Below are positions 1,958 through 35,912 of a stretch of DNA of 36,612 nucleotides, in pieces. The translations under genes and the position numbers were made by a program. The notes under the pieces are model-generated. The model did no database searches and was not told the origin of the DNA. It worked only from the letters and a program-made list of their open reading frames with translations. The stretch covers positions 1 to 36,612 of IMG/VR virus record IMGVR_UViG_3300037493_004017; one strand, 5' to 3'. The stretch is from a virus. Position 1 is the first letter of the stretch. Every line of letters starts with the position of its first letter.

Positions 1958-3229
1958 ATGAAAGCAAAACTAATTTTTTCAATCTTCACAAGCATCTTGA
2001 TGTCTTGTCTTGGTGCTGCAGCAGTCACCAGTGCAATTCCTGCACTTCCATTTGAAGGAACAGCAGCAGTGCTTCTTTTGACTGGAATTTTTGTCAACAC
2101 TTTCAGCAATGGTGTGTTGCTTGGTATTCTGAATCCTTCTGACTTGACCTTCAATGGTGAAGAAGTGAAATCACTTTCAGAAGCAATTCAAGAAGCGGTT
2201 TATTCAAAACCTGCATTGACACAATTTCACACACCATACACTGGAATCAAAGCAAGAAAGCAGATTGCTTTGCTTGGTCGTTTGAATGGTCTTGTTGGAA
2301 AGAAGCACGTGCAGTCAGGTGGTGAAGTTACTTGTGCGCCTACAGCAAACACTGCAGGAATAACCAATTCTGAAAAGTTCTGGTCACCTGCTTACATTGA
2401 AGACCGTTTTGCTGAATGTTGGGACAACCTGCTTGAAACATTCTTCATCTATGGAACAATGAATGGTGTTGAAAAAGCTGACTTGACAAAAACAGAATTT
2501 GCTGACTTTTTAATTGGTAGAATTGATGATGAATTATATGAAGCAGTTTTGCGTTTCGTTTGGTTCGGTGATGTTGATGCTGCTGCTTATGATGTTTCAC
2601 CTGCAGGAAATTTCATTTCTGGAATAACACCTGCAAGTTGGAATGCAATTGATGGTCTTTGGAAACAATTGTTCACCATTGCTGCAGGAACACCTGCAAG
2701 AAGGGTGACAATAGCAAGAAATGCACAAGCAACATTTGCACTTCAAGCATTCACAACTACAGACACAACAAATCTGGTGGTGACCAATATGCTTCAATCA
2801 TTGATATTCAGTGCTGACTTTCGTTTGCGTGAAAAAGCTGACAAGATTATCATTGTCACACAATCGGTTGCTGACCAATACGTGAAAGAACTTGAAAGTG
2901 GTTCATCAAATGGTCAACCAGTTTCTTTTGAATACATTCAGAATGGAATTTCAAAACTTTCAAGAATGGGTGTGACAATTTATGCTTTCTCTTTTTGGGA
3001 CAGAATGATACAAGGTTACACAAGAAATTCAACTGGTCTTGGTTGGGACAATCCACATCGTGCATTGTTGTCAGTGAAAAGCAACATTGCAGTTGGAACA
3101 GAAGAAGTTTCAAACCTTGCTGAATTACTTCCTTTTTATGACCAGACATTGAAGCAGTTCTTTGTTGACTTAGGTTTCAACCTTGATGCAAAAATTCTTG
3201 AAGATTACTTGATTGAAGTTGCTTACTAA
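1958..3229 (+). CDS. Major capsid protein (probable)
   Basis: A 423-residue protein directly after the protease/scaffold gene, which is the usual place of the major capsid protein. Length and composition fit an HK97-fold shell protein, but I see no diagnostic motif, so the call rests on position, size and the strong leader. The N-terminus is odd: residues 1-57 hold two hydrophobic stretches (about 4-30 and 36-57) before a polar capsid-like body begins near NPSDLTFNG (residues 59-67). No later start codon would remove both stretches. The prefix could be a delta-domain-like leader cut off by the neighbouring protease, or a membrane-targeting segment. The body is mixed alpha/beta with Trp- and Phe-rich patches. 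Confidence 0.72.
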   Translation: MKAKLIFSIFTSILMSCLGAAAVTSAIPALPFEGTAAVLLLTGIFVNTFSNGVLLGILNPSDLTFNGEEVKSLSEAIQEAVYSKPALTQFHTPYTGIKARKQIALLGRLNGLVGKKHVQSGGEVTCAPTANTAGITNSEKFWSPAYIEDRFAECWDNLLETFFIYGTMNGVEKADLTKTEFADFLIGRIDDELYEAVLRFVWFGDVDAAAYDVSPAGNFISGITPASWNAIDGLWKQLFTIAAGTPARRVTIARNAQATFALQAFTTTDTTNLVVTNMLQSLIFSADFRLREKADKIIIVTQSVADQYVKELESGSSNGQPVSFEYIQNGISKLSRMGVTIYAFSFWDRMIQGYTRNSTGLGWDNPHRALLSVKSNIAVGTEEVSNLAELLPFYDQTLKQFFVDLGFNLDAKILEDYLIEVAY

Positions 3230-3266
3230 TTAAGAAAATTCATCAACACAAAAAAATAAAACTGAA

Positions 3267-3893
3267 ATGAAAACAATTCTTCTGACAATGTTTGCAGGTT
3301 TGCAAAGACAGTTGTCACCACAATGTGATGAAATCAATGCAGGAATTCTTTATGACTGTGACAATCCACCAAGTGGTGGTGCAAATGACAGATTAATTCT
3401 GTTCAACCTTGAAGACCTGCAGAATGCAACAATCACTTACAATGTAAGCAATCCATTGTTGATTGAAAACATTGTTCTTGGTTCTGGTGTTGTCGGTTAT
3501 GTTTTTGAAGGTTTGAATTCATCAGTTGAACCAAGAACTGGACTTGTCAAAGGTCGTTATGTGAATGGTTATGACCACGAAATCAGATTTAAAGTTTTCC
3601 AGAACACACCTGCAATCAAAGCAACATTGAACAAACTTGATGGTGCAAAATTGGTTGCACTTGTTCAGAACAATCACAAAGGTGCAAGTGGAAATTCTGC
3701 ATTTGAATTGTATGGTCTGGAAACTGGTGTTCTTTTGCAGGAACTTGCAAGAACAACTGCAGATGCTGAACTGCAAGGTGCTTATGACCTGCTAATTCGC
3801 AACAACGAAACAAGCAGACCTTCTTCTTTACCAGAAACAATCTTCATCACTGACTTTGCAACAACACTTGCACTGGTGAATTCATTGGTGTAA
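3267..3893 (+). CDS. Virion structural protein, possibly major tail tube
   Basis: A 208-residue protein following the capsid gene. It begins with two cysteines in the pattern QCDEINAGILYDCDN and continues with beta-rich sequence, including a segment (AKLVALVQNNHKG followed by FELYGLETG, about residues 125-155) of the type I associate with tail-tube-like proteins of Bacteroidota phages. No tail tube candidate stands out in the tail module at 25-34 kb, which strengthens this possibility. A head decoration protein is the alternative. The gene is followed by a terminator-like hairpin, as expected for the last gene of a highly expressed structural unit. Confidence 0.6.
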   Translation: MKTILLTMFAGLQRQLSPQCDEINAGILYDCDNPPSGGANDRLILFNLEDLQNATITYNVSNPLLIENIVLGSGVVGYVFEGLNSSVEPRTGLVKGRYVNGYDHEIRFKVFQNTPAIKATLNKLDGAKLVALVQNNHKGASGNSAFELYGLETGVLLQELARTTADAELQGAYDLLIRNNETSRPSSLPETIFITDFATTLALVNSLV

Positions 3894-3925
3894 TTGCTGA
3901 AAAGTTAAACAGTAAAAACAGAAAG

Positions 3926-3957
3926 AAAAGGTTGCTGAAAAGTGACCTTTTTTTTTC
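3926..3957 (+). terminator. Rho-independent terminator
   Basis: AAAAGGT at 3926-3932 pairs with ACCTTTT at 3945-3951 around a 12-base loop, and the right arm runs into a stretch of T residues to about 3956. It lies in the spacer after the capsid/tail-tube pair and before the next gene, so it could cap the abundant structural transcript while letting some read-through proceed to the portal gene. Confidence 0.7.
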
Positions 3958-3970
3958 TTAAAATTTGAAT

Positions 3971-4531
3971 ATGACCTTTGAAAAACTTCAAGACATACTG
4001 CAGAAAGCAAAAGACTTTGTTGTTGTTGCAGGTGGTGCAATTGATAAAAGCAAACCAGAAGTCATTGAATTGTGTGACACTTTCTTTTTCATTTACAAGC
4101 AGAAAGTTGGTGTTGGAACTTGCAGAAATTGTATCTTTGATGCTTACTTTGAACTTAAACAAATCACAAAAGAAAAATTCAACTTTATGACACAAGAAAA
4201 AAAATTCAAACTGAAAAGATTTCCAGTTTACTTTGGTCAAAGACATCAACACTATACCAACGTGAACATCACTGATGAAGTTGCACTTGAAATGGTGCGA
4301 TTCAGCAGAAGCACTGCTGCAAATTTTGAGAATGCAGAAGAACTTCTTGCAGCACTTGATGCACAAACAGTGGTTGCACCTGCAGCAGCACCAAAAGAAG
4401 CAGCAAAAGCACCTGCACCTGCAGCAGAAGTTGTTGTTGCAGAAAAAACTTCAAAAGGAATTGTCACAAAAGCAAAACCAGTTGCACCAGTTGCACCTGC
4501 ACCTGCAAAGAATGTGAAGAAGAAGAAATAA
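3971..4531 (+). CDS. Hypothetical protein with Ala/Pro/Lys-rich tail
   Basis: The protein has 186 residues from ATG at 3971; a TTG two codons earlier is less likely. Residues 1-100 look globular and alpha-helical and contain a Cys pair in GTCRNC. From about residue 120 the sequence becomes low-complexity, rich in Ala, Pro and Val, and ends NVKKKK. This tail is probably disordered and basic, which would suit DNA or capsid-interior contact. It sits between the terminator and the portal gene, so a head-associated role is likely. I do not recognise the family. Confidence 0.75.
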   Translation: MTFEKLQDILQKAKDFVVVAGGAIDKSKPEVIELCDTFFFIYKQKVGVGTCRNCIFDAYFELKQITKEKFNFMTQEKKFKLKRFPVYFGQRHQHYTNVNITDEVALEMVRFSRSTAANFENAEELLAALDAQTVVAPAAAPKEAAKAPAPAAEVVVAEKTSKGIVTKAKPVAPVAPAPAKNVKKKK

Positions 4532-4549
4532 TTCTGAAACAAAAAGAAG

Positions 4550-5980
4550 GTGAGAATTAATTTAGCCAAAATTCAGAAGCGAATTACAAGACGAGATGAC
4601 AAAGTCTTTGGAATCATCAACTATGATGTTGGCAATGACTATCCGCAAAAGGTCACTGACATTGTCAATGGTTCTGGTGTTGCAGTATCTTGTCTTGACA
4701 TCTTCAAAAAGTTTGTGACTGGAAAAGGTTTCAGTGATGCAAGTTTTGGTGAAACAATTCTTGATGGTGAACACCTTACTGCTGACAAATTTCACAGAAA
4801 GATTTCAAAAGACTTCACTTCAAAAGGTGGTTTTGCAGTTCACTTCAATTTCAACTTGCTTGGTCAGGTTGTTTCTTGGTCACACATTCCATTTGCACAC
4901 TGCAGACTTGCAATTGAAAAGAACATTGAAACAGGCAATGAAGAAATCACAAAGATTGCAGTTTATGATGACTGGTCACGTGAAAGAAGCAAGAAGATTG
5001 ACAAAGCTGACATTGATTACATTCATCTATTTGACACCAGACCAGAAGTTGTGATGCAACAGATTATTGAAGCAGGTGGAATTGAACAATATCAAGGTCA
5101 GGTTCTTTATTTTGGTCAAGATGGTGAACTTGTTTATCCACTTGCACCATACGATTCAGAACTTGAAGACATTGAAACTGATGGTCAGATTAAGTTGTTC
5201 AAATATCGGAACATTTCTGGTTCATTTATGGCTTCACACCTTCTTGTGACTTATGGTCAATTTGAAGATGGTGGAAACAATTCAGCAGGAACAGCACCTG
5301 CACTTGGTGGTGTCAGACCAACAACTGCATCAGACCAAGAAAGTGCTTTCATTGCACAAATAAAAGAATTTCAAGGTGCTGAAAATTTCAATCGTGTAAT
5401 GCACATTGAAGCAGAAACACCAGAACAAAAACCAGAACTGATTCCTTTCACACATCAGAACAATGACAAGTTGTTTGAATACCACGAAAAGTCAACACAA
5501 GACAACATCAGAAAAGTCTTCATCATTCCAACTGTCTTCATTGAAGCAATCAGTGGTTCACTTGGTTTGTCTGCACAACTGAAAGATGCTTTCACTTTCT
5601 ACAATAGAATCACACTTGATGAACGTGAAATTCTTCAAGAAGTTTACAAGTTTTTATTCAAAGATTACTTTCCTGCTGCAACTTTTGAAATCACTGAAAT
5701 CAAATTCAATGCAAACAACCTTGAAGTAAAAGATGTTCTTGATGTTGTGTCACTGAATGAAAAGCGTGAAATGGTTGGTCTTCCAGAACAGAAGAACACA
5801 ACAGACACAATTTCACTTGCTCAAAAAATAGGTGTTGGTGGAACACAATCAATGCAATCAATTCTTGTTGACACTGTGTTGACACGTGACCAGAAAGCAG
5901 GAACATTGAAAGTTCTGTTTGGTCTGACTGATGAACAAATAAACTTGATGCTTCCAGTTGTTGAAACAGTAACACCATAA
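4550..5980 (+). CDS. Portal protein (probable)
   Basis: A 476-residue protein from a GTG start with 'agaagg' close upstream. It has the length and layout of a phage portal: an N-terminal region with SGVAVSCLDIFKKFV (about 42-56), a beta-rich wing with KGGFAVHFNFNLLGQVVSWSHIP (in the 90-115 region), and a long helical C-terminal half containing FIPTVFIEA- and SGSLGLSAQLKDAF-like segments (roughly 325-350) that match the clip/stem portion of Bacteroidota phage portals. Portals form the dodecameric DNA gate at the capsid vertex. The order capsid, small genes, portal, connector supports the call. A peculiarity is its separation from the terminase by most of the circle. Confidence 0.75.
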   Translation: MRINLAKIQKRITRRDDKVFGIINYDVGNDYPQKVTDIVNGSGVAVSCLDIFKKFVTGKGFSDASFGETILDGEHLTADKFHRKISKDFTSKGGFAVHFNFNLLGQVVSWSHIPFAHCRLAIEKNIETGNEEITKIAVYDDWSRERSKKIDKADIDYIHLFDTRPEVVMQQIIEAGGIEQYQGQVLYFGQDGELVYPLAPYDSELEDIETDGQIKLFKYRNISGSFMASHLLVTYGQFEDGGNNSAGTAPALGGVRPTTASDQESAFIAQIKEFQGAENFNRVMHIEAETPEQKPELIPFTHQNNDKLFEYHEKSTQDNIRKVFIIPTVFIEAISGSLGLSAQLKDAFTFYNRITLDEREILQEVYKFLFKDYFPAATFEITEIKFNANNLEVKDVLDVVSLNEKREMVGLPEQKNTTDTISLAQKIGVGGTQSMQSILVDTVLTRDQKAGTLKVLFGLTDEQINLMLPVVETVTP

Positions 5981-5993
5981 AAAAAGAAAACAG

Positions 5994-6521
5994 ATGCAGC
6001 CGTTTCTTAGATTGCTTGACTTCACAGAATACAAGTATTTAACACAGAACCTTGACCAAGAAGAACTGGAAACTGTGATTGAAGAAGCACTTGAATTTGA
6101 CATTCTTCCAGTTATTGGTGCAGCATTTATGCTTGACATCACAACAAAACTTGAAGCAGAACCAGTTGAAACAATTTATGATGAACTTCTGAATGGTAAA
6201 ACATACACACCAACTGGTGCAACTGGTGCAATTCATTTCAAAGGACTGAAACAAGTTTTGAAGTATTATGTTTATGCAAGATTGATGGTGCAAGATGGTG
6301 TGAAATCAACAGCTTCTGGTTTTGTTCACAAGGTTCTTGAAAATTCAGAACGTGTTTCATCAACACAAAGAACACAAATGATTGCACAAACAAGGTCAGG
6401 TGCAGCAAAATTTGAAAGTGACTTGATTGCTTTTCTTTGTAATTTTGCAGCAACATATCCACTTTATTGTGGAGGAATAAGAAAGAACAAAGGAACTGGT
6501 TTCAGAATTAATGCAATTTAA
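5994..6521 (+). CDS. Head-tail connector-like protein (probable)
   Basis: A 175-residue protein starting 13 bases after the portal gene. It is mainly helical, with a long acidic helix near residues 20-35, a central TPTGATGAIHFKGL turn and a C-terminal helix bundle. This size and the position just after the portal fit head-completion or adaptor proteins that attach beneath the portal ring; similar proteins in Bacteroidota phages are annotated as DUF6712-like, which I can suggest but not confirm. ATG at 5994 follows an A-rich leader. Confidence 0.6.
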   Translation: MQPFLRLLDFTEYKYLTQNLDQEELETVIEEALEFDILPVIGAAFMLDITTKLEAEPVETIYDELLNGKTYTPTGATGAIHFKGLKQVLKYYVYARLMVQDGVKSTASGFVHKVLENSERVSSTQRTQMIAQTRSGAAKFESDLIAFLCNFAATYPLYCGGIRKNKGTGFRINAI

Positions 6522-22384: not shown

Positions 22385-22615
22385 ATGAACAGAAAAAAAA
22401 TTGCACTGATTGCTTTCATCTGGTTGCTGACACTGGTGTTGATGTTCTTCATTGCACGTTCTGACAAGACAGTGAATGTTCTGCTTGAACCTGCTTTGTC
22501 ACCTGACTGCATTCTTGTCTTGAACACAGTTGAAAAAGACACTTTCCTGCAGCAATACATTCACAATCCAGAAAGAAGGTGCAGAATTCAAGCAGCAGAA
22601 AGAAAACTTAGATAA
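22385..22615 (+). CDS. Small membrane-anchored protein
   Basis: A 76-residue protein with one N-terminal hydrophobic helix (about 5-24, KIALIAFIWLLTLVLMFFIA) followed by a polar, basic C-terminal part. ATG at 22385 follows an A-rich leader. The cytoplasmic or periplasmic side of the tail cannot be set from sequence. It ends seven bases before the small terminase start. Confidence 0.6.
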   Translation: MNRKKIALIAFIWLLTLVLMFFIARSDKTVNVLLEPALSPDCILVLNTVEKDTFLQQYIHNPERRCRIQAAERKLR

Positions 22616-22622
22616 AACTGTG

Positions 22623-23027
22623 ATGAAAAGAAAACCAAACAATCCAGATGCAGCAAAGAACCTTGTCTTCTTCAAGAAAGGTGCAGATGCAAACAGAAAT
22701 CTTGCAGGAAGACCGAAAGGAAAAGCACTTTCAACAATCTTGTCTGAACTTTTGAGCAAGTCAGCAGGTGCAAAATTGACAGAACTTGCATTTGTCAAGA
22801 AGTTGACAGCTTCAATGACACCTGCACAAAAGAAACAACTGACCACTGCAGACATTGTTGTGTTCAGATTACTTTCAGAAGCAATTGAAACTGGTGACAT
22901 CACTGCAATCAAAGAAATACTTGACAGAACAGAAGGAAAAGCAAAGCAGTCACTTGACATCACATCAAATGGTGAAGCAATTCAAGCAATCACACAAATT
23001 GAAGTGGTGCATACAATCAAGAAGTGA
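22623..23027 (+). CDS. Small terminase-like protein (DUF5681-type)
   Basis: A 134-residue protein from ATG at 22623; an earlier in-frame start exists in the previous gene but is not needed. It begins MKRKPNNPDAAKNLVFFKKG and has NRNLAGRPKGKAL, the G-R-P-K-G motif of DUF5681-type proteins that are often encoded next to a large terminase. The remainder is helical. Its stop TGA overlaps the GTG start of the terminase N-terminal gene. A small-terminase role is inferred from place and size. Confidence 0.68.
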   Translation: MKRKPNNPDAAKNLVFFKKGADANRNLAGRPKGKALSTILSELLSKSAGAKLTELAFVKKLTASMTPAQKKQLTTADIVVFRLLSEAIETGDITAIKEILDRTEGKAKQSLDITSNGEAIQAITQIEVVHTIKK

Positions 23028-23398
23028 AAATTCAGACATCAGTTGTTCTTGAAAAAATTCTTGCAGCACAAGACAAACGTGGAATTGTTCTTGAAGGTGG
23101 TTCAAGGTGCTTTGCTGCAGACACACTTGTTGTGACCAGTGAAGGAAGCAAGAAGATTTCAGAAATAAAGAAAGACAACCTTGTGCTGACATACAATGAA
23201 AGCACTGGAAAGGAAACATTCAACAAGGTTCTTGATGTTATGAAGTTCACTGCATCTGAAAAGAAAGCAGTCAGAATAAAATTGAAGAATGGAAAAGAAA
23301 TTATTTGCACACAAGACCACAAGTTTTTTTTTGATGGTGGTTGGTTGGAAATAAAACAAATACTATCTTTGTGGAATGAAAACAATTCCAAACTTTAG
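23024..23398 (+). CDS. Large terminase N-terminal fragment fused to intein N-half
   Basis: A 124-residue protein. Residues 1-28 end in VLEGGSR, the first half of the terminase ATP-binding loop. Cys29 begins an intein: CFAADTLVVTSEG (block A) and CTQDHKFFFDGGWLEIKQIL (block B, Thr96 and His99 in T-x-x-H). The fragment ends soon after block B, at the usual split point. Start GTG at 23024. The remaining halves are in the gene at 23876-25150, in the same reading frame, so the two products are expected to trans-splice into one terminase. It overlaps the HNH gene by 23 bases. Confidence 0.88.
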   Translation: MKIQTSVVLEKILAAQDKRGIVLEGGSRCFAADTLVVTSEGSKKISEIKKDNLVLTYNESTGKETFNKVLDVMKFTASEKKAVRIKLKNGKEIICTQDHKFFFDGGWLEIKQILSLWNENNSKL

Positions 23399-23891
23399 CA
23401 GGTATGCTGCAGATGAACAAGGAAACATCTATTCTTTGAACTACAAAAGAACGGGCAAAACAAAAATTATTTCACCTTGCATCAGACAAGGTTATTTGCA
23501 ATCAATGTTTCAAAGAGATGACAAAAAGTATTGCACTGAAAAGGTTCACAAGTTGGTGACACTTGCATTCTTTGGTGAAAGACCTGCAGGAACAGAAGTG
23601 AATCACATCAATGGAATAAAGACTGACAACAGAATTGAAAATCTGGAATATGTTTCACATTCAGAAAATTGTTTGCATTCATTCAGAATGAAATTGCAAA
23701 AACCAAAAGCAGGTGAATTGAATGGAATGTCAAAGTTGACTGAACAGCAGGTTGCAGAAATCAGAACCTTTGTTGCAAGTTCAAAAAAACGGTTCTATGG
23801 AAGAAAAGAACTTGCTTTGAAGTATGGAATTTCAGAAGCACACGTGAAAGACATTGTCAGAAGAAGAAGAAATGTATGGTCACACATTTAG
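23376..23891 (+). CDS. HNH homing endonuclease within the split intein locus
   Basis: A 171-residue endonuclease encoded in a different frame from both intein halves and overlapping each (23 and 16 bases). The N-terminus IPNFSRYAADEQGNIYSL is NUMOD4-like. VHKLVTLAFFG with NHINGIKTDNRIENLE (His77, Asn85, Asn89) is the HNH_3 core. The C-terminal part (MSKLTEQQVAEIRTFV, GRKELALKYGISEAH) is a helix-turn-helix DNA-binding tail typical of these nucleases. It should cut intein-lacking terminase alleles and spread the intein by repair. Start ATG at 23376; there is no A-rich leader, so translation may depend on coupling. Confidence 0.88.
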   Translation: MKTIPNFSRYAADEQGNIYSLNYKRTGKTKIISPCIRQGYLQSMFQRDDKKYCTEKVHKLVTLAFFGERPAGTEVNHINGIKTDNRIENLEYVSHSENCLHSFRMKLQKPKAGELNGMSKLTEQQVAEIRTFVASSKKRFYGRKELALKYGISEAHVKDIVRRRRNVWSHI

Positions 23892-25150
23892 AACTGTCAG
23901 ACATTGAAAGTTTTGAAAGCATTGAACTTTCAGAATGCTTTGACATTTCAGTTGAAGGAAATCACAACTACTTTCTTGACTGTGATAAAAAAATTCTTGT
24001 TCACAATTCCAGCAAAACTTGGTCAATCATTCAGTTCTTGGTGTTGTATTGTCAAGCATACAAGAATGAAGGAAAAGAAATTACAATTTGTCGTGACAGA
24101 CTGACTTGGTTGAAGTTGACAGTTTTACGTGACTTTCAAACAATCTTGAAGTTGGTTGGTTGGTGGAATGATGCTGACTTCAACAAGTCAGAAATGACAT
24201 ACAAGCTGTTTGGAAATCGTTTCACATTCATTGGTCTTGATGAACCTGCAAAACTTGGTGGTCTGAAACAAAATGTCTTCTGGTTGAATGAAGTTATTGG
24301 AACTGCAGGTTCTGCATTCAATGCAACAAAAGATGTGTTTGACAACCTTGAACAAAGAACAACTGAATTGTGGTTGTGTGACTACAATCCAAAGGTCACA
24401 AAGCACTGGTTGTTTGACAACATTCTTTCAAGACCAGATGTTGCTTACATTCACAGCACAATGGTTGACAATCCTTTTCTTGAAGAACCAATCAGACAAA
24501 AAATTCTTTCTTATGAACCAACTACAGACAACATCACAAATGGAACTGCAGATGCAGTGAAGTGGAAAGTTTATGGTCTTGGTCAGCGTGGTCAACATCA
24601 AGGTGTCATCTTCACAAATGTTGACTTTGTGAAATTCTTTCCTTCTGATTGCAAACGTGTTTGGTATGGTCTTGACTTTGGTTTCATCAATGATGTGACT
24701 GCACTGGTGAAGGTTGGAATGCAGAACGGACAACTTTATGTTGAACAACTAATTTATGAAACTGGACTGACCAACAATGACATCAGTCAAACAATGATTG
24801 AAGCAGGTCTTCACAACCAGTGTGAAATTGTTGCAGACAGTGCAGAACAGAAAAGCATTGTTGAACTTCAAAGACTTGGGTGGAAGATTGAACCTGCAAT
24901 GAAAGGTGCAGACAGTGTGTTGTTTGGAATTAATGCTTTGAAGAATTACAAAATCAACATTGTTGAAACATCACTTGACACAAAGACTGAATTTGAAAAC
25001 TATGTTTGGAAAGAAAATCAAATGACTGGTGAAGTCAGCAACACACCAGTTGACAAGTTCAATCACATCATTGATGCAATCAGATATGTTGCTTTGAATA
25101 AGTTTGCAATACAACCAAGAAAAACAAAAAGAATAAAAATCAACTTCTGA
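23876..25150 (+). CDS. Intein C-half fused to large terminase C-terminal part
   Basis: A 424-residue protein. Residues 1-44 are an intein C-half: FDISVEGNHNYFLDCDKKILVHN with block F His30 and the terminal His43-Asn44. Ser45 is the +1 residue. The rest (45-424) is a terminase: SSKTW completes the ATP-binding loop GGSR/SSKT, NVFWLNEV holds the Walker B acid, and the nuclease domain has WYGLDFGF, a DSAEQKS region and DKFNHIIDAIRYVAL. This fits PBSX/Terminase_3-like large subunits. The spliced product would have 408 residues (28 + 380). Without splicing neither half has a complete ATP site. Starts ATG at 23876 inside the HNH gene. Confidence 0.9.
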   Translation: MVTHLELSDIESFESIELSECFDISVEGNHNYFLDCDKKILVHNSSKTWSIIQFLVLYCQAYKNEGKEITICRDRLTWLKLTVLRDFQTILKLVGWWNDADFNKSEMTYKLFGNRFTFIGLDEPAKLGGLKQNVFWLNEVIGTAGSAFNATKDVFDNLEQRTTELWLCDYNPKVTKHWLFDNILSRPDVAYIHSTMVDNPFLEEPIRQKILSYEPTTDNITNGTADAVKWKVYGLGQRGQHQGVIFTNVDFVKFFPSDCKRVWYGLDFGFINDVTALVKVGMQNGQLYVEQLIYETGLTNNDISQTMIEAGLHNQCEIVADSAEQKSIVELQRLGWKIEPAMKGADSVLFGINALKNYKINIVETSLDTKTEFENYVWKENQMTGEVSNTPVDKFNHIIDAIRYVALNKFAIQPRKTKRIKINF

Positions 25151-33724: not shown

Positions 33725-33957
33725 TGCAGCTAAAAAGCATAATTTTAAAACTTCAACAATCTGGTGACCTGCAGGAACTTTTCAAACAAGGTTTCATATC
33801 AAGCAAAGTGATAATTGACAAAGACATCTTCTTGACTTGTCAAACACATCTTCAAACTGGAATGAAGAAAACAGAAGCAGTTTATGCAACTGCAGTTCAG
33901 TGGAAGATTTCAGATGACAAAGTCTGGAAGGTCATCAGAACAATGGAAGAAAAGTAA
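33724..33957 (+). CDS. Small helical protein
   Basis: A 77-residue protein overlapping the tape measure stop by one base (TGATG). Mostly helical with basic and acidic residues mixed; the last part (MKKTEAVYATAVQWKISDDKVWKVIRTMEE) resembles a small DNA- or protein-binding helix pair. Its stop overlaps the start of the glycosyltransferase gene (TAATG). Function unknown. Confidence 0.65.
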   Translation: MQLKSIILKLQQSGDLQELFKQGFISSKVIIDKDIFLTCQTHLQTGMKKTEAVYATAVQWKISDDKVWKVIRTMEEK

Positions 33958-35912
33958 TGCTAAAAAAAGAAATAACATTTCACATCATTGCAACTGGTTT
34001 CAATTGTCATCAGTATGTTGATAAGTGTGTTCAGTCAGTCTTCAACCAGACACAAAGCAATTGGTGTCTGCACCTTGTCAATGATGGTTCAACTGATGCA
34101 ACTGGTGAAAGATGTCTGAACTATAAAGGTCACAACAAAGTTGTTGTTCACAACTACAAAGAAAATCTTGCAGCAGCATTCAGAAGAATGCAGGTCATCA
34201 GAACACTTCCTGCAGAAGATGTTGTCTTGTTGCTTGGTCTTGATGACGAATTGCTTCCAAATTGTCTTGCACGTGTGCAGCAGGAATACAACAAAGGAAT
34301 GTTGATGACCTATGGAAACTGGAAAGACCAAAAAGGTCAGATGCTTCCAAAGACATTCAGTCTTGAATTTGACAACTTCACACATCAAACAAGGAACTAC
34401 AGACAAGTGAAATATCGGTCAACAGCACCAAACACTTTCAAAGTATTTCTTTTCAACAGAATTCCAGACAAAGACTTTCAGCTTGATGGAAAGTGGATTG
34501 ACACCACCACTGAAAGTGAAACAATGTTTTCTTGTCTTGAAATGTCAGGAAAAGAAAGAATTGGTGTCATTAAAGATGTGATTTATTTATACAATCGTGC
34601 TTTGCCAAATGGAACACTGAAAAGACTTGGTGTTGATTACAAGTTGCTTGTGCTTTCAAGAATTGTTGCAAGACCAAAGAAGCCATTGTTCATTGAAACA
34701 GAAAAAATAATTCAAGAACCAGTCAAGTCAATTGTTCTGATTGTTCAGTTTGAAAAAATAATTCAGCAAACAATGGAAGAAATGTGTGCTGAACATATCA
34801 ATGAACCTTATGAATTAGTTATCTATGACAGCAGTGAAGCACCAAAAGGTTTTGAATTTTACAAAACATATTTTGCTGCAATGTATAATTGTTTTAGACT
34901 TATTTACATAAACAACACAAGTCAGGTTTCAGACAACCAAAAAGTGGAACAGTGTCTGCAAGTGATTGAAAACAAAAATGAAATAATAATTCACAAAGAA
35001 GCATTGTCAGTTCTGAATGTCAGCACTTCTGATTGGGCGAATTATGCACAAGACAATTGTGCTGCACTGAATGCTGCAGGTGTAAAGTGTGTTGGTTTAA
35101 AACTGATTCCACATTCCTTTGGTTATGACAGACATCTTCCAGTTGTGTCACGTGAATTGATGAAGGCTGAAATTGCTTCTGGCAAGTTCAATGTCTTGCA
35201 GATATTTAATTCCGACTCAACACTTATTGACTTGATAAAACAATTCAAAGGAAATAAAATAATTTATCACACTGGTTCATCGTATCGTGCAAAGTCAAGT
35301 CAGTTGAATGCAGTTTTCAATCCTATTGTTGACCAAGCAATCATTGCACTTGGTGAATTTGCAAATCTTGGTGCAAAGAAATCAAAGTATATTTCAGTTG
35401 CAGTTGATGTTCCTGCAGAAGAAATAAGGATTGAACACAGACCTTTGAAGTTCCTGCATTGTCCTTCAAATGCAGATGTGAAAGGAACAAGCACAATTGT
35501 CAGGTTGATGAAAAACATTCCTTGTGATTTCACCAGTAACACCAAAATTCTGCAGTATAAAGACAACCTTGAAAGAATGAAGTCTTGTGATGTTTACATT
35601 GAACTTCTGAATCCACAAATCAATGGTGACAAATATGGTTCTTTTGGAACAACAGCAGTGGAAGCTGCAATGCTCGGAAAGATTGTTGTCACACAAAATT
35701 TGTCATCAGATGTTTATGCTGCAACTTATGGTCAAAGTCCTTTGGTGTTGGTAAAAGATGAACAAGACTTTGTTGAAAAGATTAATTGGTTGCTTTCATT
35801 GACACCAGAAGAAATCTTTGAACTGAAAAAAGAACATCAGAAGTGGTCAATCACAAAACATTCTTACCTTGCAACTGGAAAAAGACTAAAAAAAATACTT
35901 GATGAAATTTAA
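33957..35912 (+). CDS. Two-domain glycosyltransferase (GT2-like plus GT4-like)
   Basis: A 651-residue protein. Residues 1-240 are a GT-A/GT2 domain: IATGFNCHQYVDKCVQSVFNQ, VNDGSTD at 41-47 and GLDDE at about 94-98 (D-x-D-like). Residues 420-651 are a GT-B/GT4-like domain, with IIYHTGSSYR, KFLHCPSNADVKGT and GTTAVEAAMLGK (Glu near 569) for the acceptor-site signature. A middle part links them. Such proteins add sugars to phage DNA, virion proteins or host glycans. A methyltransferase and a possible sugar-transfer protein follow, so a modification unit is likely. The acceptor is not shown by sequence. Confidence 0.85.
   Translation: MLKKEITFHIIATGFNCHQYVDKCVQSVFNQTQSNWCLHLVNDGSTDATGERCLNYKGHNKVVVHNYKENLAAAFRRMQVIRTLPAEDVVLLLGLDDELLPNCLARVQQEYNKGMLMTYGNWKDQKGQMLPKTFSLEFDNFTHQTRNYRQVKYRSTAPNTFKVFLFNRIPDKDFQLDGKWIDTTTESETMFSCLEMSGKERIGVIKDVIYLYNRALPNGTLKRLGVDYKLLVLSRIVARPKKPLFIETEKIIQEPVKSIVLIVQFEKIIQQTMEEMCAEHINEPYELVIYDSSEAPKGFEFYKTYFAAMYNCFRLIYINNTSQVSDNQKVEQCLQVIENKNEIIIHKEALSVLNVSTSDWANYAQDNCAALNAAGVKCVGLKLIPHSFGYDRHLPVVSRELMKAEIASGKFNVLQIFNSDSTLIDLIKQFKGNKIIYHTGSSYRAKSSQLNAVFNPIVDQAIIALGEFANLGAKKSKYISVAVDVPAEEIRIEHRPLKFLHCPSNADVKGTSTIVRLMKNIPCDFTSNTKILQYKDNLERMKSCDVYIELLNPQINGDKYGSFGTTAVEAAMLGKIVVTQNLSSDVYAATYGQSPLVLVKDEQDFVEKINWLLSLTPEEIFELKKEHQKWSITKHSYLATGKRLKKILDEI

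What the first reader, a model, noticed from the sequence alone, without database searches (positions are those of the whole stretch)
23024..25150. Fractured large terminase: split intein in the ATP-binding loop with a free HNH nuclease between the halves
The terminase is cut between GGSR and SSKT, inside the Walker A-like loop. Each half carries one intein half (block A Cys29 and block B T-x-x-H; C-terminal His-Asn before Ser+1). An HNH/NUMOD4 endonuclease gene lies between, in a different frame and overlapping both. The two intein halves share one reading frame, so they look like a former continuous intein-endonuclease gene that broke apart. This matches the 'fractured gene' arrangement known for some phage replication genes (gp41, NrdA/J). 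ATP-driven packaging would require trans-splicing first, which could time packaging.
Basis: partly seen in the sequence, partly recalled or inferred. Interest (0 to 1): 0.88.

Follow-up and report, generated by a model that had tools for sequence, protein, structure and literature searches.

The report
Split-intein phage terminase with homing nuclease
A phage's DNA-packaging motor gene is cut in two inside its ATP-binding loop by a mobile element made of two half-inteins around a free DNA-cutting enzyme, so the two protein halves are expected to be joined after translation before the motor can work; the parts are known, but this combination, and the related genes in which the cutter is hidden in another reading frame of an unbroken intein, are new or barely described.

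Summary
Window 23024-25150 encodes TerL-N (28 aa) + IntN (96 aa), an HNH gene in another frame overlapping both neighbours (23 and 16 nt), and IntC (44 aa) + TerL-C. Joined halves match the gp41-1 split intein full length; splicing residues are present; spliced TerL reads GGSR|SSKT, like its closest intein-free relatives. Nine further distinct phage loci have the same fractured TerL, so sequencing error is excluded. TerL trees reject grouping the window's TerL with the fractured TerLs whose HNH is closest: the cassette has moved between phages.

Instead, 48 other phage loci, and isolates TJE1 and Highwayman, have an unbroken intein with an HNH gene nested out of frame inside it: zero stops in the intein frame where 336 are expected. 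Fractured and nested forms look like two states of one element; which came first is unresolved. 'Timing of packaging' is untested.

Precedents: fractured genes (Dassa 2009), HNH in a fractured PolB (MIJ3), atypically split AceL/GOS-TerL inteins, out-of-frame HNH in the ShiLan methylase. Verdict: real; new variant of a known kind.

The parts
23024..23107 (+). TerL N-extein, 28 aa, ends ...GGSR (first half of the Walker A-like loop); GTG start overlaps the stop of the upstream gene
   Evidence: alignment of the spliced protein with intein-free TerLs
23108..23395 (+). IntN, 96 aa: Cys1, block B TQDH; stop TAG 23396-23398
   Evidence: Pfam Intein_splicing E 7.6e-9; joined halves vs gp41-1 intein E 5.7e-12
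23364..23371 (+). TATCTTTG box just before the HNH ATG; TATCTT is conserved in all 10 fractured group-A loci, usually with TATCTTT 5 nt from the ATG; resembles the Bacteroidota -7 box TAnnTTTG (from my own knowledge); function not shown
   Evidence: in the window as a whole such boxes are no more frequent than chance
23376..23891 (+). Free-standing HNH homing-type endonuclease, 171 aa, frame +1 relative to IntN; overlaps the IntN ORF by 23 nt and the IntC ORF by 16 nt
   Evidence: Pfam HNH_3 E 3.3e-14; phrog_59 HNH endonuclease E 1.7e-39; AlphaFold pLDDT 86, only PDB match below E 0.001 is I-HmuI 1u3e
23876..24007 (+). IntC, 44 aa, ends ILVHN; own ATG inside the HNH 3' end
24008..25150 (+). 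TerL C-extein, begins Ser+1-Ser-Lys-Thr; rest of the ATPase domain and the nuclease domain; includes stop
   Evidence: Terminase_3 and Terminase_3C above cut-off; spliced TerL 49% identical to intein-free L353 TerL
22530..23027 (+). Upstream gene in the small-terminase position (weak DUF5681 match)
   Evidence: E 4e-5, below the curated cut-off

Best explanation
The locus is a mobile split-intein cassette (IntN - HNH homing endonuclease - IntC) sitting in the ATP-binding loop of the phage large terminase gene. TerL-N-IntN and IntC-TerL-C are encoded as two polypeptides (shown: reading frames and stops). The intein halves associate into a Hint fold and trans-splice, giving an intact GGSRSSKT loop (inferred from conserved catalytic residues, gp41-1 homology and exact match to empty-site TerLs). 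The HNH protein is made separately and cuts intein-free terL in co-infecting phages so that the whole cassette is copied in (inferred; supported by conflicting TerL and cassette trees). Related phages carry the same kind of HNH gene nested out of frame inside an unbroken intein, so fractured and nested forms are probably alternative states of one element.
For:: ORFs, domains, full-length match of joined halves to gp41-1; 82 of 83 TerL relatives align across the junction with no insert; the closest read GGSR|SSKT; nine more fractured loci with the same layout; window vs L001 identity is 37% in TerL but 59% in HNH, 53% IntN, 47% IntC, while a close pair (L001/L239) has nearly equal TerL and HNH identity (83/81%). 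TerL data reject a clade of window with L001 and L239 (p-AU 1e-57), though HNH groups them (97/94) and fractured inteins group together (93/95); isolated Lactobacillus phage CL2 and Brochothrix phage BL3 have TerL fractured before its conserved DATRY tail, so such splits are compatible with a viable phage; the splicing domain of a continuous relative is predicted as a Hint fold.
Against: No splicing, expression or cleavage was measured. Disjunct distribution could in part reflect repeated loss. The CL2 and BL3 splits are at another TerL site and in another HNH subfamily. The HNH cut site is unknown.
Confidence: 0.88

Rival explanations
1. The split is an artefact: two indels in an otherwise continuous intein-endonuclease gene.
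For: IntN and IntC share one frame, and a T9 run lies at about 23325-23333.
Against: Same layout in nine other distinct loci, with different frame relations in L011, L012 and L242; N ORFs in L011 and L012 end before the HNH start; the IntN reading stays in register past the T9 run (GGWLEIKQIL); 9 to 28 stops in the intein frame over the HNH in the fractured TerL-type loci tested.
Confidence: 0.01
2. Programmed ribosomal frameshifting joins IntN, HNH and IntC into one polypeptide.
For: The ORFs overlap by 23 and 16 nt.
Against: In L011 and L012 the IntN ORF stops before the HNH ATG; overlap lengths and relative frames vary.
Confidence: 0.03
3. The halves work as a two-piece TerL without splicing, as in a phage ribonucleotide reductase cut in two by a homing endonuclease gene; the intein pieces are inert remnants.
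For: One phage RNR split by an HEG is known to work as two peptides (described in PMC10448857).
Against: Splicing residues are kept in both halves and across divergent loci; the break lies inside the ATP-binding loop; inert remnants should decay.
Confidence: 0.05
4. The HNH is not a homing enzyme but a packaging cofactor of TerL, like the HNH proteins next to terminase in HK97-like phages.
For: HNH genes near terminase can act with it in cos cleavage (discussed in PMC10448857).
Against: It lies inside the intein, resembles I-HmuI, travels with the intein independently of TerL, and nearly all TerL relatives lack it at this site.
Confidence: 0.06

Closest known systems
Fractured genes with split inteins (gp41-1, NrdJ/NrdA, IMPDH; Dassa et al. 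2009, paper not held, cited)
   Same: Gene broken at an intein, halves split at the canonical endonuclease position, free-standing endonuclease gene between; intein sequence closest to gp41-1
   Different: Host gene is TerL; endonuclease is HNH_3/I-HmuI-like, not the Vsr-like family; the HNH ORF overlaps both halves
Phage MIJ3 PolB split intein with HNH gene (PMC6892783)
   Different: DNA polymerase B host gene, one isolate
AceL-TerL and GOS-TerL naturally split inteins (PMC11766414)
   Same: Naturally split inteins from TerL
   Different: Atypical split with IntN of 25-37 aa; here IntN 96 / IntC 44 aa with an HNH gene at the break
Campylobacter phage IBB_35 terminase with MobE (PMC3322345)
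   Same: TerL interrupted, HNH-family endonuclease gene between the pieces, reported with an intein
   Different: Interpreted by its authors as intron plus intein; two ORFs between the pieces
ShiLan domain, hidden out-of-frame HNH in a phage methylase (PMC11855218)
   Same: HNH gene encoded out of frame in an insert that keeps the host frame open
   Different: No splicing domain; the continuous TerL relatives found here have a full intein around the hidden HNH. A preprint by the same group on 'non-canonical architecture' of phage inteins could not be read

Membership tests
Split intein (class 1) | Block A Cys1, block B TxxH, C-terminal His-Asn and Ser/Thr/Cys+1, on two polypeptides | tested here: met
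   TQDH, VHN|S
Split intein (class 1) | Hint fold from the two halves | tested here: inconclusive
   Full-length sequence match to gp41-1; fold predicted only for a continuous relative, L023
Split intein (class 1) | Trans-splicing activity | not testable with these tools
   needs co-expression
Fractured gene arrangement (features from my own knowledge and citing papers) | Host gene split at an intein with a free-standing endonuclease gene between the halves | tested here: met
Dassa-type fractured genes in the narrow sense | Endonuclease of the Vsr-like family | tested here: not met
   HNH_3 and I-HmuI-like instead; an HNH version has a precedent in MIJ3
HNH homing endonuclease (I-HmuI-like) | HNH domain and related fold | tested here: met
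   HNH_3 E 3e-14; 1u3e is the only PDB match below E 0.001
   no NUMOD model reported by Pfam at E<=1
HNH homing endonuclease (I-HmuI-like) | Cleaves the intein-free allele | not testable with these tools
   only indirect: cassette and TerL trees disagree
Large terminase | Terminase_3 ATPase and Terminase_3C nuclease domains | tested here: met

The most novel reading that the evidence does not exclude
Fractured terminase genes arise from dual-coded inteins: an HNH gene nested out of frame inside a working intein is the earlier state, and when the intein frame over it gains stops (with an ATG available on the IntC side) the intein becomes a naturally split intein. This would give a general, testable route by which split inteins are born, and explain why the halves so often share a frame that skips the endonuclease.
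Probability: 0.4. Interest if true: 0.75.

Novelty: new variant of a known kind. Interest (0 to 1): 0.6.

Why it matters
Split inteins are major protein-engineering tools, but how they arise is unclear. Here one element family shows two states side by side in an essential phage gene: an unbroken intein translated straight through an out-of-frame nuclease gene, and the fractured intein. It also gives ten candidate canonical-site natural split inteins related to gp41-1, and shows that terL genes in public phage records (CL2, BL3, TJE1, Highwayman) hold unannotated intein pieces or hidden nuclease genes.

Tried and rejected
Assembly indels and programmed frameshifting were rejected from relatives. 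Group I introns: Rfam gave no hit in seven loci, including the inteinless HNH insertions. The window has fewer intein-frame stops than a synonymous-codon null (9 vs 19, P 0.001-0.002), which looked like a relic of a once-open frame; its closest relatives are at background (17-27 stops), so I do not rely on it. The TATCTTTG box was tested as a Bacteroidota promoter: 4 sites with the right spacing on the + strand of the window against 1.9 expected, not persuasive. The order nested -> fractured: fractured inteins form one side of a branch (93/95), but a single clade of nested ones is not rejected (p-AU 0.10 and 0.22). A viral-contig search with TerL-C alone found nothing. Literature searches for inteins with out-of-frame nucleases found only ShiLan and a genome note.

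Full report
1. The observation. Window 22530-25150 holds, in order, a small gene in the small-terminase position, then three ORFs on the + strand: GTG 23024-23398, ATG 23376-23891, ATG 23876-25150. The first and third share a frame, with 9 stops between them over the middle gene; the middle one is in another frame and overlaps its neighbours by 23 and 16 nt. Pfam and PHROGs identify an intein N-terminal splicing domain, an HNH endonuclease and a large terminase. Concatenating the 96-aa and 44-aa intein pieces gives a full-length match to the gp41-1 split intein (6qaz, E 5.7e-12) and to the Spl DnaX mini-intein. Cys1, TQDH, the terminal HN and Ser+1 are all in place. The window is a virus record of 36.6 kb, with portal, head protease, RecT, exonuclease, tape-measure and methyltransferase genes.

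2. Empty sites. TerL relatives from viral contigs and isolated Bacteroides phages (about 36-51% identity) are intein-free in 82 of 83 cases, and the spliced window protein aligns with them across the junction. The closest, L353 and L356, read GGSR|SSKT exactly as the spliced window protein does.

3. It is a family. A scan with the IntN half found L001, with the identical layout. Larger scans and a profile search of 345 loci gave ten distinct fractured loci of this group, window included: L001, L239, L009, L011, L012 (same sequence in L013-L015), L213, L242, L250, L255. That excludes an assembly error. The frame relation varies: HNH is +1 to IntN in 8 of 10, IntC is in the IntN frame in 7 of 10. 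In L011 and L012 the N ORF ends before the HNH start, so frameshifting is not the common rule.

4. It is mobile. Between window and L001, TerL is 37% identical but HNH 59%, IntN 53%, IntC 47%; between the close pair L001/L239, TerL and HNH are nearly equal (83 and 81%), so HNH is not simply slow-evolving. The HNH tree groups window with L001, L239, L009 and L213 (97/94, with one long-branched free HNH). The TerL tree puts window among intein-free TerLs and L011 (98/100), and holding window, L001 and L239 together costs 138 log units (p-AU 1e-57). The cassette has therefore moved between TerL lineages; cutting by the HNH is the inferred driver. The same HNH family also sits at the TerL start without an intein in L251, L258 and L259; in L258 and L259 a truncated extra copy of the TerL N-terminus, broken off at the Walker A loop, precedes it.

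5. The unexpected part. In 48 other distinct loci the intein is one continuous ORF from IntN to IntC, and an HNH gene is nested inside it in another frame. Group A (Walker A site, HNH at +1) is related to the window's HNH. Group B (mostly the TerL nuclease motif, HNH at +2, zinc-ribbon-like C-terminus) is a second HNH family. Shuffling synonymous codons of the HNH predicts 336 stops in the intein frame over these 48 genes; there are none. Single AT-rich cases are decisive (L310: 0 against 24.9; L023: 0 against 21; L010: 0 against 18). The 13 split loci tested have 203 against 190 expected. Zero in the first class follows from its definition; the point is that such genes exist at all, and that the distribution is bimodal. 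So both frames are kept. The HNH frame is also under selection: HNH-frame identity exceeds intein-frame identity in every pair compared, and differences concentrate at HNH third positions. In group B, 18 of 38 HNH starts have a GGAG-type Shine-Dalgarno sequence against 1.3 expected, which supports internal initiation; group A shows none. AlphaFold of the continuous L023 intein gives a confident core from the flanks and a low-confidence, probably disordered stretch (residues 113-265, pLDDT about 30) where the intein frame runs through the HNH gene; the core matches gp41-1 and other inteins.

6. Isolated or named phages. The nested form is present, unannotated, in Tetrasphaera phage TJE1, Rhodobacteraceae phage LS06-2018-MD07 and Acinetobacter phage Highwayman, each annotated as one terL CDS. 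The fractured form is present in Lactobacillus phage CL2 (TerL-N+IntN / HNH / unannotated IntC+TerL tail) and Brochothrix phage BL3 (HNH decayed; gp3 is IntC+TerL tail). In both, the missing tail carries the conserved DATRY motif, so in these phages the split must be tolerated or repaired by splicing.

7. Mechanism. Shown: frames, domains, catalytic residues, empty sites, recurrence, cassette/TerL incongruence. Inferred: trans-splicing restores TerL; the HNH cuts empty terL and the cassette is copied in; nested and fractured are two states of one element. Not shown: any control of packaging timing. Whether nested came before fractured is open: fractured inteins form one side of a branch (93/95), the shared frame geometry fits descent from a nested form, but the alternative is not rejected.

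8. What is known. Fractured genes with split inteins were described by Dassa et al. 2009 (not held; cited). HNH between PolB intein halves is reported for phage MIJ3. Naturally split TerL inteins AceL-TerL and GOS-TerL are split after only 25-37 residues. A Campylobacter phage TerL interrupted by a MobE gene was read as intron plus intein. An out-of-frame HNH inside a phage methylase, without any splicing domain, was published in 2025 (ShiLan); a companion preprint on non-canonical phage intein architecture could not be read and may report out-of-frame nucleases in inteins. I therefore rate the finding a new variant of a known kind, not a new category.

Noticed in passing
L002, L010, L016, L023, L244, L247, L256, L307, L310 (group A); L004, L061, L041, L062 and 35 more (group B): HNH genes nested out of frame inside continuous, stop-free inteins, mostly in TerL; two HNH families, two relative frames.
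   Followed up: yes
L345 (Lactobacillus phage CL2) 506-2771; L350 (Brochothrix phage BL3) 727-2607: Named phages whose TerL is fractured near the C-terminus by a split intein; the IntC+TerL tail is unannotated in CL2 and called gp3 in BL3.
   Followed up: partly
L258 3238-5281; L259 350-2420; L251 203-2157: Same HNH family at the TerL start without an intein; in L258 and L259 a truncated extra TerL N-terminus sits upstream and the full TerL downstream.
   Followed up: partly
L213 1851-4409: TerL fractured at Walker A and, in the same gene, what looks like a second intein at the nuclease motif (VHNCDAARY).
   Followed up: no
window 23364-23371 and equivalents in nine loci: TATCTT(T) conserved at nucleotide level before the HNH ATG in all ten fractured loci (TATCTTG in L001), not seen there in nested ones; like a Bacteroidota -7 box, function unknown.
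   Followed up: partly
window 23399-23875: Only 9 intein-frame stops over the HNH where 19 are expected; close relatives are not depleted. Unexplained.
   Followed up: partly
L003 4263-7262; L005 3972-6859: Fractured helicase genes with other, possibly Vsr-like, endonuclease ORFs between the intein halves.
   Followed up: no
L017, L018, L019, L022 (about 3100-6000): IntN ORF runs on through the endonuclease region, then IntC and the C-extein start in another frame: a third type of break.
   Followed up: no
window 33957-35909: Phage gene fusing a family 2 glycosyltransferase with a group 1 glycosyltransferase.
   Followed up: no
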